A stretch of 64,000 bases of DNA, from assembly GCF_016403105.1 (NCBI RefSeq), contig NZ_CP046155.1, positions 496,001-560,000 on the forward strand, in the 5' to 3' direction. Of the stretch, positions 25,631 through 37,040 are shown in pieces. The DNA is from Leptolyngbya sp. BL0902 (GTDB taxonomy: Bacteria > Cyanobacteriota > Cyanobacteriia > Phormidesmidales > Phormidesmidaceae). The position numbers were made by a program, and so were the translations under genes. The stretch's first letter is position 1. Each line of letters starts with the position of its first letter. Under the pieces are notes generated by a model. The model was given only the letters and a program-made list of their open reading frames with translations, was not told where the DNA came from and did not search any database.

Positions 25631-25702
25631 TGGCTCAGGCGTGATTTGAACACGCGACCAAGGGCTTATGAGTCCCCTGCTCTACCACTGAGCTACTGAG
25701 CC
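25631..25702 (-). tRNA. tRNA with CAU anticodon (elongator Met or Ile2)
   Basis: The minus strand folds into a 72-base cloverleaf: acceptor GGCTCAG/CTGAGCC, D arm GCTC/GAGC, anticodon loop CTCATAA (CAT), T arm GCGTG/CACGC with TTCAAAT loop, discriminator A. CCA is not encoded. The anticodon stem closes with an A-G mismatch at 31/39. CAT anticodons serve initiator Met, elongator Met or lysidine-modified Ile2. The paired first base excludes a typical initiator; the variable loop TTGGTC resembles E. coli Ile2. Confidence 0.92.
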
Positions 25703-33623: not shown

Positions 33624-36600
33624 ATGGCCTACGAACCCCTGCACCACAAGTATCGTCCCCAGCGGTTTAACCAACTGGTGGGCCAAACGGCCATTGCCAC
33701 CACGCTGACCAATGCCCTGAATCAGCGGCGGATTGCTCCGGCCTATCTGTTCTGCGGCCCTAGGGGCACGGGTAAAACCTCTAGTGCCCGAATTTTGGCC
33801 AAATCCCTCAACTGTATTGCCCAAGATCACCCCACCCCAGAACCCTGCGGCACCTGCGAAACTTGCCGATCCATCACCAACGGCTCGGCCTTGGATTTCA
33901 TTGAAATTGACGCCGCCAGCAACACGGGCGTTGACAACATCCGCGAACTGATTGAACGCGCCCAATTTGCCCCGGTGCAGTGTCGGTACAAGGTTTACGT
34001 CATTGATGAATGCCTGACCGGAGACTCCCTGGTTCTCACCGCCGATGGCCCTATGAGAATCGACAACCCCGCCATTGAGGGGAAACAGATCCTCAGCTAC
34101 AACGAGCAGTCCCAACAGTGGGAATGGAAACGGGCGGTGCGATGGCTAGACCAAGGAATCCGCCCCATCTTGGAAATTCAGACCACCCGTCGTAAGATCA
34201 GGTGTACTGCAAACCACTTGATTAGGACAACGGAAGGATGGATTGCCGCCGGAAAACTTCAAGCGGGACACCAAATCTTATCCCCTGCGCCTGCGGGTGC
34301 GGCAGCCTCATCTCTGCTGTTGGATCCGACCATCGACCGCGCCGCTTCGTGCGGGGACACCAATTTAAGGGCAACACCTACGGCCAAAAGCCCTACAGCG
34401 CTGAGCGTATTGCTGAACAAGCAGAACGTTTGCGTCCCCATTGTCAATGCGGCTGTGGAGAGAAACTCAACATTCCAGCCTTCCTTTTACAAAAAGGGAA
34501 AGGGCTCAAGAGTATCCAATCCTATTGGGACAGGCATCCCTACAAAAAGTCTCACGGACTCTGGGAGAAACGAACGGAGCAGATTGTCCAACAATCCCAA
34601 AGCCTCTCCACCGAAGTCCTGGGGCTCATCTACGGCACCCTCCTGGGCGACGGATCGATTGTCTACCCTAATTTCCACAGTCGCTTTCCCCGCTTGGTCT
34701 GGACGCACGGACAGCGGCAGCAAGGCTGGATGGAATACAAAGCCGCTAGGCTCTCCTGTTTGCAAACCCGGTGCTACATTGCCGCTAATGCAGGATATGG
34801 CGCAACCTCCATTTGTGGCCGTACAGCTTGCCACCCCGACTTGGTGGAGGTCTTCCATCGGGTCAGAGGAGTCAGTGGGAACAAAACCGTCACCCAAGAC
34901 TGGTTATCCTGCATTACCCCAGAAGGTTTGGCCTGGTGGTACCTGGATGATGGATCCCTCAACCTTAGTCCACAAGGTAGCCCCCGGATTCAGTTCCACA
35001 CCGAAGGCTACTCCCCCGAAGAGAACCACCTCATTGCAGCATGGCTTACCGACCTGGGGTATGCGGCCACATTCCGCTCCTACACAAGGACTCGCAACGC
35101 TAAGCAGTACTCCTACATTGCCTTGGGTGCGAAGTCAGCCCGCAAGTTGTTGGCCGACTTGCGACCATTCTCCATCCCAACCATGGACTACAAATTTGGA
35201 GACGGTCGTATCTGCCCGCCACGCTGGGGTTGAGGCGGTTTACGACATTGAGGTGGAAGACAACCACAACTTTGTGGCCAATGGGTTGCTGGTGCACAAC
35301 TGCCACATGCTCAGCACCGCCGCCTTCAATGCCCTGCTAAAAACCCTGGAGGAGCCGCCCAGCAATGTGGTGTTTGTGCTGGCCACCACCGACCCCCAGC
35401 GGGTGTTGCCGACGATTATTTCTCGCTGCCAGCGGTTCGACTATCGGCGCATTCCCCTAGAGCCGATGATTGACCACCTGGGCAAAATTGCGGCCCAGGA
35501 AAATATCGCCATTAATGATGAAGCGCTACGGCTGGTGGCCCAGGTTTCCCAGGGGGGCTTGCGAGATGCCCAGAGTTTGCTGGATCAGCTCAGTTTGCTA
35601 GAGCCGCCCGTGACCGCTGATGCGGTGTGGGATTTGGTAGGAGCAGTGCCAGAGCGGGATTTGCTGGCCCTGGTGCAGGCCATCCTCACCGACGATAGCA
35701 GCACCGTGTTAGACCAGGCCCGTAAGCTGATGGATCGAGGCCGGGAACCGCTGATTGTGCTGCAAAACTTGGCCGGGTTCTACCGAGATTTGCTGATTGC
35801 CAAAACGGCGGGCAGTCGTCAGGATTTGGTGGCCATCACCCCCCCCACCTGGGCGGAAATGCAAACCCTGGTGCAGCGTCTTGAACCCTCGCTCTTATTG
35901 ATGGGCCAACAACACCTCCGCAGCGCCGAAGCTCAGGTGAAAAACACCACCCAGCCCCGTCTATGGCTGGAGGTCACGCTATTAGGACTGTTGCCATCGA
36001 CCCTCGCCCGCCCGATTCCGGCGACTTCTGCCATGGGAGTCGCCCCTCGTCCGGCAGCGCCCCCACAACCCGCCGCCCCCCCACCAGAGAAACCCGCTGC
36101 GCCCAGTGCGCCCCCGCCAACCCCGACCGCTTTCACCTCGCCGCCAGCATCCGCCCCATTGCCAGATGCTCCTACGTCCGATCAGGCTCCAGCGGCCCAC
36201 GTCCCAGCGGCCCACGCTCCAGCCACTCACCCCTTAGCCACTCACCCCCCAGCTAATCGCCTTGCTGATCCAACGCCAGTACATCCAACGCCAGTACAAG
36301 GGTCGGATCAAATGCCGCCGCCGAATAATGGCCAGGGTGCCACCGTTGCCAGTGGCGATTTGCCCCATCTGTGGGCGCAGGTGATTGCGGTGCTAGAGCC
36401 CTTGGGTACCCGTGCGCTGATGCTTCAGCAGGGCAACCTAGTCTTTTTTGATGGCACCGTGGCCAGGGTGGGGATTAGCTCTCGGCCCCTGTTTAAGATG
36501 GCCCAGGGCAGGGTCGAAAATGTGGAAGCGGCCTTCCAGAAAGTCCTTAACCGAAAAGTCGTCGTTTCCCTGGAGGTGTTACCCGACCCAAAGCCTGAGC

Positions 36601-37040
36601 CCCCAGCCCCAAACATTTCCCAGGCACCGGGGCAGGGGGTAGCCGAGCCGCCCACGGCCCCCTATCCCCAATATCCAACGACGAATGCGGCCCCTACTCC
36701 TGCGGCCAACTCACCCCAAGCCACGGAGTCAGCCGCTTCCGTTCCCGTTTCTAACCCCGTTGCCCCCGTACCGACAACGGGAGACTCAACCTCGCCAGTC
36801 TCGCCCATGGCGTCTACGGTGGCGGCAGACCCCATGGCCAGCGCCATGCCCACCAGACCACCTCTGCCGGAAATTGCCAGCGACTTTGATCGGGCCGTGA
36901 AGAATTTTGCCCAGTTTTTCAATGGGCAGGTGGTGGACATCGACGACGACCTAGACCTGCTATTGGGTAGCCCTAGCCCCAAACCCTCCACGGCGGCGGC
37001 TCATCAGCCCTCCCACCCCGATAAGGACGTGCCCTTTTAG
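33624..37040 (+). CDS. dnaX: DNA polymerase III gamma/tau subunit precursor containing an intein
   Basis: A 1138-residue precursor; removal of the 430-residue intein (residues 130-559) leaves 708 residues. The clamp-loader ATPase shows Walker A GPRGTGKTS, a CxxC zinc module (CGTCETC), Walker B VYVIDE / CHMLS split by the intein, and sensor 1 VLATTDPQRV. A Pro/Ala-rich tail of about 330 residues follows from ~residue 800, with a conserved-looking patch near AQVIAVLEPLGTRALM. The clamp loader opens and loads the beta clamp during replication. Splicing is required to rebuild Walker B, so host ATPase activity depends on the intein working. Confidence 0.95.
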   Translation: MAYEPLHHKYRPQRFNQLVGQTAIATTLTNALNQRRIAPAYLFCGPRGTGKTSSARILAKSLNCIAQDHPTPEPCGTCETCRSITNGSALDFIEIDAASNTGVDNIRELIERAQFAPVQCRYKVYVIDECLTGDSLVLTADGPMRIDNPAIEGKQILSYNEQSQQWEWKRAVRWLDQGIRPILEIQTTRRKIRCTANHLIRTTEGWIAAGKLQAGHQILSPAPAGAAASSLLLDPTIDRAASCGDTNLRATPTAKSPTALSVLLNKQNVCVPIVNAAVERNSTFQPSFYKKGKGSRVSNPIGTGIPTKSLTDSGRNERSRLSNNPKASPPKSWGSSTAPSWATDRLSTLISTVAFPAWSGRTDSGSKAGWNTKPLGSPVCKPGATLPLMQDMAQPPFVAVQLATPTWWRSSIGSEESVGTKPSPKTGYPALPQKVWPGGTWMMDPSTLVHKVAPGFSSTPKATPPKRTTSLQHGLPTWGMRPHSAPTQGLATLSSTPTLPWVRSQPASCWPTCDHSPSQPWTTNLETVVSARHAGVEAVYDIEVEDNHNFVANGLLVHNCHMLSTAAFNALLKTLEEPPSNVVFVLATTDPQRVLPTIISRCQRFDYRRIPLEPMIDHLGKIAAQENIAINDEALRLVAQVSQGGLRDAQSLLDQLSLLEPPVTADAVWDLVGAVPERDLLALVQAILTDDSSTVLDQARKLMDRGREPLIVLQNLAGFYRDLLIAKTAGSRQDLVAITPPTWAEMQTLVQRLEPSLLLMGQQHLRSAEAQVKNTTQPRLWLEVTLLGLLPSTLARPIPATSAMGVAPRPAAPPQPAAPPPEKPAAPSAPPPTPTAFTSPPASAPLPDAPTSDQAPAAHVPAAHAPATHPLATHPPANRLADPTPVHPTPVQGSDQMPPPNNGQGATVASGDLPHLWAQVIAVLEPLGTRALMLQQGNLVFFDGTVARVGISSRPLFKMAQGRVENVEAAFQKVLNRKVVVSLEVLPDPKPEPPAPNISQAPGQGVAEPPTAPYPQYPTTNAAPTPAANSPQATESAASVPVSNPVAPVPTTGDSTSPVSPMASTVAADPMASAMPTRPPLPEIASDFDRAVKNFAQFFNGQVVDIDDDLDLLLGSPSPKPSTAAAHQPSHPDKDVPF
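34011..35300 (+). mobile_element. Intein inserted at the DnaX Walker B motif
   Basis: 430 residues in the dnaX frame. Splicing block A begins with Cys1 (CLTGDSLVLTADGPM). Block B is RCTANHLIRTTEGW, with T66 and H69 of the intein. Block F is YDIEVEDNHNFVANGLL, and block G ends VHN with the penultimate His and last Asn. The next host residue is Cys. All residues needed for canonical splicing are present. The middle part in this frame (SPAPAGAAASSLLLD onward) is Ser/Thr/Pro/Trp-rich with no endonuclease motif; the endonuclease lies in another frame of the same DNA. A DnaX intein at this same site is known from Synechocystis. Confidence 0.95.
34238..35233 (+). CDS. LAGLIDADG homing endonuclease, out of frame inside the intein
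   Basis: A 331-residue protein in the -1 frame relative to dnaX. Two CxCGC knuckles (C17-C21 in IPCACGCGSLI, C69-C73 in HCQCGCGEK) flank PRRFVRGHQFKG. The two LAGLIDADG helices are LGLIYGTLLGDGSI (about 127-140) and GLAWWYLDDGS (about 229-240), each with its catalytic Asp. ATG 34238 follows AGGA by 10 bases; a TAG in this frame at 34223 excludes read-in from upstream. The stop at 35231 falls just where intein block F begins. Such enzymes cut intein-less alleles so the element is copied in. Confidence 0.88.
   Translation: MDCRRKTSSGTPNLIPCACGCGSLISAVGSDHRPRRFVRGHQFKGNTYGQKPYSAERIAEQAERLRPHCQCGCGEKLNIPAFLLQKGKGLKSIQSYWDRHPYKKSHGLWEKRTEQIVQQSQSLSTEVLGLIYGTLLGDGSIVYPNFHSRFPRLVWTHGQRQQGWMEYKAARLSCLQTRCYIAANAGYGATSICGRTACHPDLVEVFHRVRGVSGNKTVTQDWLSCITPEGLAWWYLDDGSLNLSPQGSPRIQFHTEGYSPEENHLIAAWLTDLGYAATFRSYTRTRNAKQYSYIALGAKSARKLLADLRPFSIPTMDYKFGDGRICPPRWG

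What the first reader, a model, noticed from the sequence alone, without database searches (positions are those of the whole stretch)
34238..35233. Homing endonuclease overprinted out of frame inside a DnaX intein
Seen: a complete 331-codon gene with two LAGLIDADG helices (LGLIYGTLLGDGSI, GLAWWYLDDGS) and two CxCGC knuckles sits in the -1 frame between intein blocks B and F. The dnaX frame stays stop-free over the same 996 bases and gives a Ser/Thr/Pro-rich linker. A TAG at 34223 in the endonuclease frame rules out making it by frameshift from upstream, so it needs its own start (ATG 34238, AGGA 10 bases before). Known: intein endonucleases are normally in frame with the splicing domain and are released by splicing. 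Here the nuclease would be a free protein made only by internal initiation, and the linker is a by-product of overprinting. Both frames must avoid stops, which couples host viability to the nuclease gene. I recall the Synechocystis DnaX intein as of similar size, but cannot check whether it also hides such a frame.
Basis: partly seen in the sequence, partly recalled or inferred. Interest (0 to 1): 0.92.

Follow-up and report, generated by a model that had tools for sequence, protein, structure and literature searches.

The report
Nuclease gene hidden inside a dnaX intein
Inside a self-splicing insert of a cyanobacterial DNA-replication gene lies a second complete gene, read one base out of step, for a DNA-cutting enzyme that probably helps the insert spread; the same double-coded arrangement recurs in other cyanobacteria and in one phage, and a broken-up version occurs in other phages.

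Summary
The 430-residue DnaX intein (34011-35300) carries, in the -1 frame, a 331-codon LAGLIDADG gene (34238-35233); both frames are open. All 39 cyanobacterial homologs found in named genomes lie in a dnaX intein, all in the -1 frame. The dnaX frame has no stop in 70 of 70 distinct inteins. In 14 close pairs the nuclease frame is under purifying selection (omega-like 0.21) and the linker nearly neutral (0.82); dnaX-frame stops are avoided, 0 observed against 244 expected in 43 genes. The nuclease model matches I-SceI (Z 22.6); the linker is modelled as disordered. Most likely this is a mobile intein whose homing endonuclease is a separate protein, started at an ATG formed by the intein's Gly-Trp codons; expression, splicing and cutting are inferred. 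A phage helicase intein (FoX3) has the same layout; in phages Ymer and ES the host frame is broken into apparent split halves. The closest published case I could read is the ShiLan insertion (PMC11855218), not an intein; one older paper that may bear on this was not held.

The parts
33624..37040 (+). dnaX (DNA polymerase III gamma/tau) with intein, 1138 codons
   Evidence: NCBIfam PRK14948.1 E = 6e-243
34011..35300 (+). DnaX intein, 430 residues, C1 to N430, inserted at VIDE|CHMLS; Cys is the +1 extein residue
   Evidence: Intein_splicing PF14890 E = 5.3e-13; PDB 7cfv Spl DnaX mini-intein E = 2.2e-36
34011..34298 (+). N-terminal splicing segment (intein residues 1-96, blocks A and B)
   Evidence: outside the pLDDT < 50 stretch 97-388; 10-residue block means 90 or above up to residue 90
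34299..35174 (+). dnaX-frame linker (intein residues 97-388), Ser/Thr/Pro-rich, modelled as disordered
   Evidence: pLDDT < 50 over residues 97-388; aa-level nearly neutral
35175..35300 (+). C-terminal splicing segment (residues 389-430, blocks F and G)
   Evidence: 10-residue block means 90 or above from residue 391
34238..35233 (+). overprinted homing endonuclease gene (HEG), 331 codons, -1 frame relative to dnaX
   Evidence: LAGLIDADG_2 PF03161 E = 1.2e-16; I-SceI Z 22.6
34238..34240 (+). HEG ATG, made by the intein's Gly-Trp codons GGA TGG
   Evidence: Gly codon is GGA in 46 of 46 HEG-length inteins with Gly-Trp
34224..34227 (+). AGGA, candidate Shine-Dalgarno (lies in the Arg-Thr codons AGG ACA)
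   Evidence: SD core in 24 of 43 homologs at -16 to -5, background 14%
34223..34225 (+). TAG in the HEG frame, the nearest upstream stop (4 codons lie between it and the ATG)
34286..34303 (+). first Cys knuckle CACGCG (HEG residues 17-22)
   Evidence: two CxC[GE]C knuckles in 40 of 43 homologs, one in 3
34442..34459 (+). second Cys knuckle CQCGCG (HEG residues 69-74)
34619..34660 (+). LAGLIDADG motif 1 LGLIYGTLLGDGSI with D138
   Evidence: D138 invariant in 18 sequences
34925..34957 (+). LAGLIDADG motif 2 GLAWWYLDDGS with D237, D238
   Evidence: both invariant in 18 sequences
35231..35233 (+). HEG stop TGA, made by the intein's Val-Glu codons
   Evidence: TGA from Val-Glu at the same distance from the intein end in 17 of 43

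Best explanation
It is a mobile intein in dnaX whose homing endonuclease is not a domain of the intein but a separate protein, overprinted in the -1 frame of the intein's central insert. The dnaX frame gives a precursor that splices itself; the 292-residue tract between the two halves of the splicing domain is an unstructured by-product kept free of stops. The nuclease, an I-SceI-like two-motif LAGLIDADG enzyme with an N-terminal pair of Cys knuckles, is translated from its own ATG, in about half of the homologs with a Shine-Dalgarno-like core upstream. It cuts intein-less dnaX at the conserved Walker B coding site, and repair copies the intein in. Shown by computation: both frames, conservation, selection on the nuclease frame, stop avoidance in dnaX, predicted fold, patchy distribution, signs of horizontal transfer. 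Inferred: internal initiation, cleavage of the empty site, splicing.
For: Homologs: 10 of 96 genomes, own genome included; 19 of 386 phylum-wide, own included, of which 15 in dnaX inteins and 4 only distant proteins elsewhere; 53 loci in named genomes, 39 of them cyanobacterial. All 39 lie in a dnaX intein in the -1 frame; one, L056, is cut by a contig end. Selection: omega-like 0.21 (95% 0.18-0.23) for the nuclease, 0.82 (0.69-0.96) for the linker; control N-extein 1.57 in the -1 frame, 0.07 in dnaX. Stops: 0 observed, 244 expected over 43 genes. Linker identity between distant homologs is only slightly above what nuclease conservation alone gives (0.267 against 0.250, 0.305 against 0.275). 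Fold: I-SceI Z 22.6, rmsd 2.1, 191 residues; linker pLDDT < 50. Start: Gly codon GGA in 46 of 46, against 28 of 47, 21 of 43 and 9 of 44 at three other conserved Gly. Mobility: in one genus of 26 genomes 16 empty contiguous sites, 5 with a full-length element (one with a stop in the nuclease), 2 shortened, 3 unresolved; Dendronalium L049 and five Nostoc/Desmonostoc-type loci (L018, L052, L054, L059, L064) share 92-93% of the intein but 80-82% of the extein.
Against: No expression, splicing or cleavage data. SD core absent in 19 of 43; mean anti-SD pairing at -19 to -13 (-2.0 to -2.7) is within one SD of background (-1.15, SD 2.21), and its best value, at -4, overlaps the ATG. Weak RNA structure at the start also occurs elsewhere in the scanned stretch, and no shuffle control was run. 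The GGA codon is also kept in 20 of 22 shortened inteins with Gly-Trp, so its conservation is partly inheritance. A frameshift inside the overlap is not excluded. The linker value lies just below 1, so a weak constraint on it is possible. Identity between L049 and its Nostoc-type partners does not decline smoothly away from the site, so a co-conversion tract is not clear. Broken copies show no clear relaxation.
Confidence: 0.82

Rival explanations
1. The nuclease is made by -1 ribosomal frameshifting within the overlap, as a fusion of DnaX, the intein N half and the nuclease, rather than from its own start.
For: The frame offset is -1 in dnaX and in the three phage layouts FoX3, Ymer and ES. 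AAATTTG occurs at +81 in 15 of 43 homologs. In Ymer and ES the nuclease frame also overlaps the N-half frame, so a slip is possible there too.
Against: The nearest upstream stop in the nuclease frame lies 1 to 29 codons before the ATG in 43 of 43, so the slip must fall in a short zone or after the ATG. No slippery heptamer is shared by most homologs, and the commonest lies after the first Cys knuckle. An ATG at the Gly-Trp (or Ala-Trp) codons is kept in all 43, though 43 were chosen for having it; of the 47 HEG-length inteins the other 4 also have it.
Confidence: 0.12
2. The nuclease gene is a dead relic: it was once mobile, and the second frame survives by inheritance only.
For: Broken copies (5 of 37) and shortened copies (e.g. 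L009, L010, L023, L024, L073) exist.
Against: omega-like 0.21 over 14 non-overlapping pairs at 81-98% nt identity, with the wrong-frame control at 1.57. Motif WYxDDG kept in 43 of 43 and a GTLLGD-type motif in 42 of 43.
Confidence: 0.05
3. The nuclease has been kept for another purpose (for example as a regulator or maturase acting on dnaX) rather than homing.
For: Wide persistence across cyanobacteria; nothing computed here tests cleavage.
Against: Patchy presence with empty sites within one genus, intein more alike than extein in some pairs, and frequent breakage or absence of the gene fit a homing cycle.
Confidence: 0.06
4. Assembly artefact: two compensating indels put a normally in-frame nuclease out of frame.
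Against: Same layout in all 39 cyanobacterial loci from named genomes; stop avoidance is absent in eight control genes without an intact overlapping host frame.
Confidence: 0.01

Closest known systems
Bifunctional inteins with an in-frame LAGLIDADG domain (e.g. PI-SceI, PI-PfuI)
   Same: Splicing domain, nuclease coded between blocks B and F, same fold superfamily (PI-PfuI Z 13.7, PI-SceI 12.8)
   Different: Here the nuclease is in another frame, is a separate protein, and is far closer to the intron enzyme I-SceI (Z 22.6) than to intein enzymes
ShiLan domain (Arsenault, Gosselin, Gogarten 2025, PMC11855218; abstract, section 4.3, first of two parts of the results, and passages read)
   Same: Insertion that is open in the host frame and hides a homing endonuclease in another frame, with its own start
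   Different: ShiLan is HNH type in a phage methylase and has no splicing domain; here the carrier has an intein splicing domain and sits in a chromosomal replication gene
Ssp DnaX intein of Synechocystis (Liu and Hu 1997, known from reference lists only; used as a tool in PMC3443213, introduction, discussion and passages read, and PMC3620165, passages read)
   Same: Same host gene and intein family; its length of 430 aa is my recollection. [quoted passage not shown]
   Different: Whether it carries the overprinted gene could not be checked here
Fractured genes with split inteins and a homing endonuclease (Dassa et al. 2009; not held, recalled)
   Same: A free nuclease gene between the two halves of an intein, as in phages Ymer and ES here
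   Different: In the window the host frame is intact; the nuclease family recalled for that paper is different
I-SceI / I-WcaI intron endonucleases (LAGLIDADG_2, PF03161)
   Same: Fold over 191-206 residues, both motifs
   Different: Carrier is an intein, not a group I intron; extra N-terminal Cys-knuckle region

Membership tests
Intein (class 1) | N-terminal Cys/Ser, block B TxxH, C-terminal His-Asn followed by Cys/Ser/Thr | tested here: met
   CLTGDS, CTANH, VHN|C in the window; first Cys, last His-Asn and +1 Cys in the complete inteins listed
Intein (class 1) | Splicing-domain (Hint) fold | tested here: met
   Confident model of residues 1-96 and 389-430; best match 7cfv DnaX mini-intein
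Intein (class 1) | Protein splicing | not testable with these tools
   no bench data for this protein
Bifunctional intein | Endonuclease domain in frame with the splicing domain | tested here: not met
   nuclease in -1 frame; dnaX-frame insert modelled as disordered
LAGLIDADG homing endonuclease, LAGLIDADG_2 (I-SceI-like) | Family profile above curated cut-off | tested here: met
   PF03161 61.6 bits, cut-off 25
LAGLIDADG homing endonuclease, LAGLIDADG_2 (I-SceI-like) | Two LAGLIDADG motifs with acidic residues, two-domain fold | tested here: met
   D138, D237, D238 invariant in 18; I-SceI Z 22.6, rmsd 2.1, 191 residues, on a predicted model
LAGLIDADG homing endonuclease, LAGLIDADG_2 (I-SceI-like) | Cleavage of the empty target site | not testable with these tools
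   needs protein
ShiLan-type hidden endonuclease insertion | HNH nuclease in an insertion without splicing domain | tested here: not met
   LAGLIDADG, and a splicing domain is present
Fractured gene / split intein with free HEG | Host frame interrupted between intein halves | tested here: not met
   0 stops in the window; 13 and 10 stops in phages Ymer and ES
Group I intron-borne HEG | Group I intron around the HEG | tested here: not met
   Rfam on the whole window: only a tRNA reaches a gathering cut-off

The most novel reading that the evidence does not exclude
Overprinted inteins are a recurrent architecture of their own: one I-SceI-like nuclease lineage sits in the -1 frame of intein genes in cyanobacterial dnaX and in a phage helicase, its start and stop codons lying inside codons of the splicing domain. 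Because the nuclease is already an independent protein, loss of the host frame can leave a working split intein with a free nuclease between its halves. That state is what phages Ymer and ES appear to show, so this would be a route from contiguous to natural split inteins.
Probability: 0.38. Interest if true: 0.88.

Novelty: new variant of a known kind. Interest (0 to 1): 0.76.

Why it matters
A dual-coded mobile element, apparently old, sits in the middle of an essential replication gene. One frame is selected for protein, the other mainly against stops, and natural controls exist (intact, broken, shortened, split). It makes testable how bacterial genes-within-genes are translated and kept, and whether natural split inteins arise by loss of the host frame around an overprinted nuclease. 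It also means that the 'endonuclease domain' assumed in DnaX inteins of this family may be an out-of-frame reading.

Tried and rejected
Sequencing artefact: rejected by conservation. Group I intron: no Rfam match in the window beyond a tRNA. In-frame nuclease degraded beyond recognition: no Pfam family other than Intein_splicing passes its cut-off in the dnaX-frame insert (the weak matches there, such as DinB and Baculo_DNA_bind, have E 0.15 and 0.38), and the insert is modelled as disordered. PF14528 (LAGLIDADG_3) in the own genome: no match. Close relatives in viral contigs: none; FoX3 nuclease: one locus, identical, from a contig of FoX3's length; Ymer nuclease: none. The scan of named genomes rested on two short peptide patterns, so copies lacking them were not seen by it. 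Relaxed selection in broken copies: not seen; some of these could be assembly errors. Co-conversion tract: no clean decline. Extein outliers involving L043 and the pair L002-L043 look like misaligned or truncated flanks (extein identity was taken without gaps) and were not used. The N-terminal Cys-knuckle region (residues 1-105) was barely tested by the fold search. Two phage loci, L155 (crAss-like) and L156 (huge phage), were read but the relation of nuclease to host gene stayed unclear; L158 was fetched and not analysed. Publication check: ten library searches. They found the ShiLan paper and, in their listings, no report of an out-of-frame nuclease inside an intein. Gorbalenya 1998 and Dassa 2009 are not held, and Liu and Hu 1997 was seen only in reference lists. 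The ShiLan paper cites reference 53, Gorbalenya 1998, in a sentence on overlapping reading frames, so that paper may already note something of this kind.

Full report
What is there. dnaX (33624-37040) holds an intein of 430 residues (34011-35300), from Cys1 to Asn430, inserted at VIDE|CHMLS. In the -1 frame an ORF of 331 codons runs from 34238 to 35233. It matches LAGLIDADG_2 (E = 1.2e-16); in the dnaX-frame insert Intein_splicing (5.3e-13) is the only family over its cut-off. AGGA lies at 34224-34227 and an in-frame TAG at 34223-34225. The ATG is formed by the intein's Gly-Trp codons and the TGA by its Val-Glu codons, so both ends of the nuclease gene run into codons of the splicing domain.

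Not an artefact. With the window's nuclease as query, 10 of 96 genomes had a match, the own genome included. With a seven-row profile, 19 of 386 genomes across the phylum had one at 1e-5, own included; four of those 19, and one of two matches in a fifth, are distant proteins of 22-30% identity (where tblastn reports one) that are not in dnaX (L026, L027, L030, L031, L034). In named genomes 53 loci were returned: 39 cyanobacterial and 14 Bacillaceae. All 39 cyanobacterial loci lie in a dnaX intein with the nuclease in the -1 frame; L056 is cut by its contig end (the printout was cut, one search covers every locus). They include Nostoc, Anabaena, Calothrix, Microcoleus, Planktothrix, Pseudanabaena, Microcystis and Leptolyngbya. 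In the phylum sample 32 of 386 genomes have a DnaX-type intein (hits at E <= 2.9e-29): 10 with a full-length nuclease gene, 5 with part of it, 16 short ones with no recognisable nuclease gene or only its last residues, and 1 not fetched. Among the 31 read, no in-frame nuclease was seen.

Which frame is selected. From 43 nuclease genes open for at least 270 codons from the ATG I took 14 non-overlapping close pairs (81-98% nt identity). Substitutions were sorted by their effect in both frames and compared with expectation. Omega-like values were 0.21 (95% 0.18-0.23) for the nuclease and 0.82 (0.69-0.96) for the linker; with kappa 1 they were 0.16 and 0.65, with kappa 4 0.27 and 1.03. As a control, the N-extein gave 1.57 in the same -1 frame, which holds no gene, and 0.07 in dnaX. 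At 50-60% nuclease identity the linker identity (0.267, 0.305) is slightly above what nuclease conservation alone gives (0.250, 0.275); among closer relatives the excess grows, as shared ancestry predicts.

Stop avoidance. Shuffling synonymous codons within each nuclease gene predicts 244 stops in the dnaX frame over 43 genes (2.7 to 8.3 per gene; highest single-gene chance of none 3.2%); none is seen. The third sense frame of the same genes holds 10 to 27 stops each. The dnaX frame is open in 70 of 70 distinct inteins, one of them, L002, cut by its contig end, while 5 of 37 inteins of exactly 1290 bp have stops in the nuclease core. Every shortened intein measured keeps the dnaX frame. So dnaX must stay open and the nuclease may die. 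Frameshifts in the nuclease would be removed by selection on dnaX, but nonsense mutations are not, unlike in an ordinary in-frame intein.

Structure. The nuclease model (mean pLDDT 82.8) matches I-SceI (1r7m, Z 22.6, rmsd 2.1, 191 residues) and I-WcaI (Z 21.9). The next enzymes, including the intein enzymes PI-PfuI (13.7) and PI-SceI (12.8), are far below. The intein model is confident only for residues 1-96 and 389-430; residues 97-388 have pLDDT below 50. Its best match is the solved Spirulina DnaX mini-intein 7cfv. The nuclease thus resembles intron-type enzymes, which argues that it was acquired separately and is not a frameshifted version of a typical intein nuclease. The distant Bacillaceae homologs fit this: of 11 such loci given to Rfam, 10 have group I intron matches near the nuclease, on the opposite strand; the 5 distant cyanobacterial loci have none. 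Against a strict division, relatives of 22-37% identity also occur as in-frame intein domains (see below).

Translation. The Gly codon before Trp is GGA in 46 of 46 HEG-length inteins, against 28 of 47, 21 of 43 and 9 of 44 at three other conserved Gly. In the one without Gly-Trp (L065, Ala-Trp) the frame still has Met at that point. An SD-like core lies at -16 to -5 in 24 of 43, background 14%; the Arg codon at that place is AGG in 25 of 41, against 103 of 608 elsewhere. These counts ignore shared ancestry, and shortened inteins keep GGA in 20 of 22. Averaged anti-SD pairing at -19 to -13 is not outside background, and its best value overlaps the ATG; RNA structure at the start is weak but not uniquely so. 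A frameshift in the overlap is possible but no site is general. Internal initiation therefore remains an inference.

Mobility. In the window's genus (26 genomes) 16 have a contiguous, empty dnaX site, 5 a full-length element (L005 with a stop in the nuclease), 2 a shortened one, and 3 are unresolved. Dendronalium (L049) and five Nostoc or Desmonostoc-type loci (L018, identical in the intein to L058 Desmonostoc, L052, L054, L059, L064) share 92-93% of the intein but only 80-82% of the extein, while the pairs L014/L040 and L015/L016, with broadly similar extein identity, share 81-83% of the nuclease gene. This points to transfer of the element. A clean co-conversion gradient was not seen.

Other carriers. 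tblastn against phage records gave 20 records and against plasmids 1, none covering 80% of the query. I compared frames with the host annotation in six of these 21 and looked at three more loci (L155, L156, L157). In Xanthomonas phage FoX3 the nuclease (L148 2315-3073; it lacks the Cys knuckles) is in the -1 frame of a helicase CDS whose intein is intact (Intein_splicing 5e-11); 0 stops against 3.2 expected, P = 0.008. In Pectobacterium phage Ymer and Escherichia phage ES the nuclease, again in the -1 frame and with a CKCGCG knuckle, overlaps the N half and the C half of a helicase intein. The host frame between the halves has 13 and 10 stops, about as many as shuffling predicts (13.4 and 12.2). 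Each half of Ymer alone scores below the Pfam cut-off for Intein_splicing (2.9e-6 and 5.4e-5), and trans-splicing is not shown. Four further Pectobacterium phages and phage AN_ECEAS share the nuclease at 95-100% and 42% identity to Ymer but were not checked base by base. KLEP7, Gostya9, Miltoncostaea and one huge phage (L157) have it in frame. One nuclease superfamily therefore occurs in frame, overprinted, and between apparent split halves.

What is known. Ten searches of the paper library found one close precedent, the ShiLan insertion: an out-of-frame HNH nuclease in a phage methylase without a splicing domain (PMC11855218; abstract, section 4.3, first part of the results and passages read). 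PMC3620165 (passages) counts the Ssp DnaX intein among those with a putative endonuclease domain. Gorbalenya 1998 and Dassa 2009 are not held and Liu and Hu 1997 was seen only in reference lists, so priority is open. An unsolved point is origin: an insertion that gave several host-frame stops at once would have broken dnaX, so the element may have been tamed in a dispensable copy, a phage, or a stop-poor genome. This is speculation.

Changes after checking: confidence in the best explanation was lowered from 0.84 to 0.82 and in frameshifting raised from 0.10 to 0.12, because the Ymer and ES layouts do not exclude a slip and the averaged anti-SD signal is not above background; the probability of the novel case was lowered from 0.40 to 0.38 because trans-splicing and independent starts are not shown.

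Noticed in passing
L148 1884-4250 (Xanthomonas phage FoX3, MT161383.1): Helicase intein with the same nuclease superfamily in the -1 frame and an intact host frame: a second overprinted intein in an unrelated gene.
   Followed up: partly
L149 1764-4874 (Pectobacterium phage Ymer) and L153 1785-4919 (Escherichia phage ES): Helicase apparently carried as a natural split intein, with the nuclease gene overlapping both halves in the -1 frame; 13 and 10 host-frame stops between the halves.
   Followed up: partly
L026, L027, L030, L031, L034: Distant LAGLIDADG-like proteins (about 211-240 aa) with similar neighbour ORFs in several of these cyanobacterial genomes; looks like a fixed, perhaps domesticated, family.
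   Followed up: no
L074-L087 (Bacillaceae): Distant homologs lie near group I intron matches (10 of the 11 Bacillaceae loci scanned), the nuclease being on the strand opposite to the intron; neighbour ORFs look like flagellin (recalled).
   Followed up: partly
own genome G000:C2:40792-41550: A second DnaX-like gene, 57% identical to the extein query; genome G002 has one too.
   Followed up: no
L007, L008, L067: Nuclease variant with a longer N-terminal region, in which the Cys-knuckle unit aligns twice.
   Followed up: no
window 25631-25702: tRNA gene, minus strand; the only Rfam match in the window at gathering cut-off.
   Followed up: no
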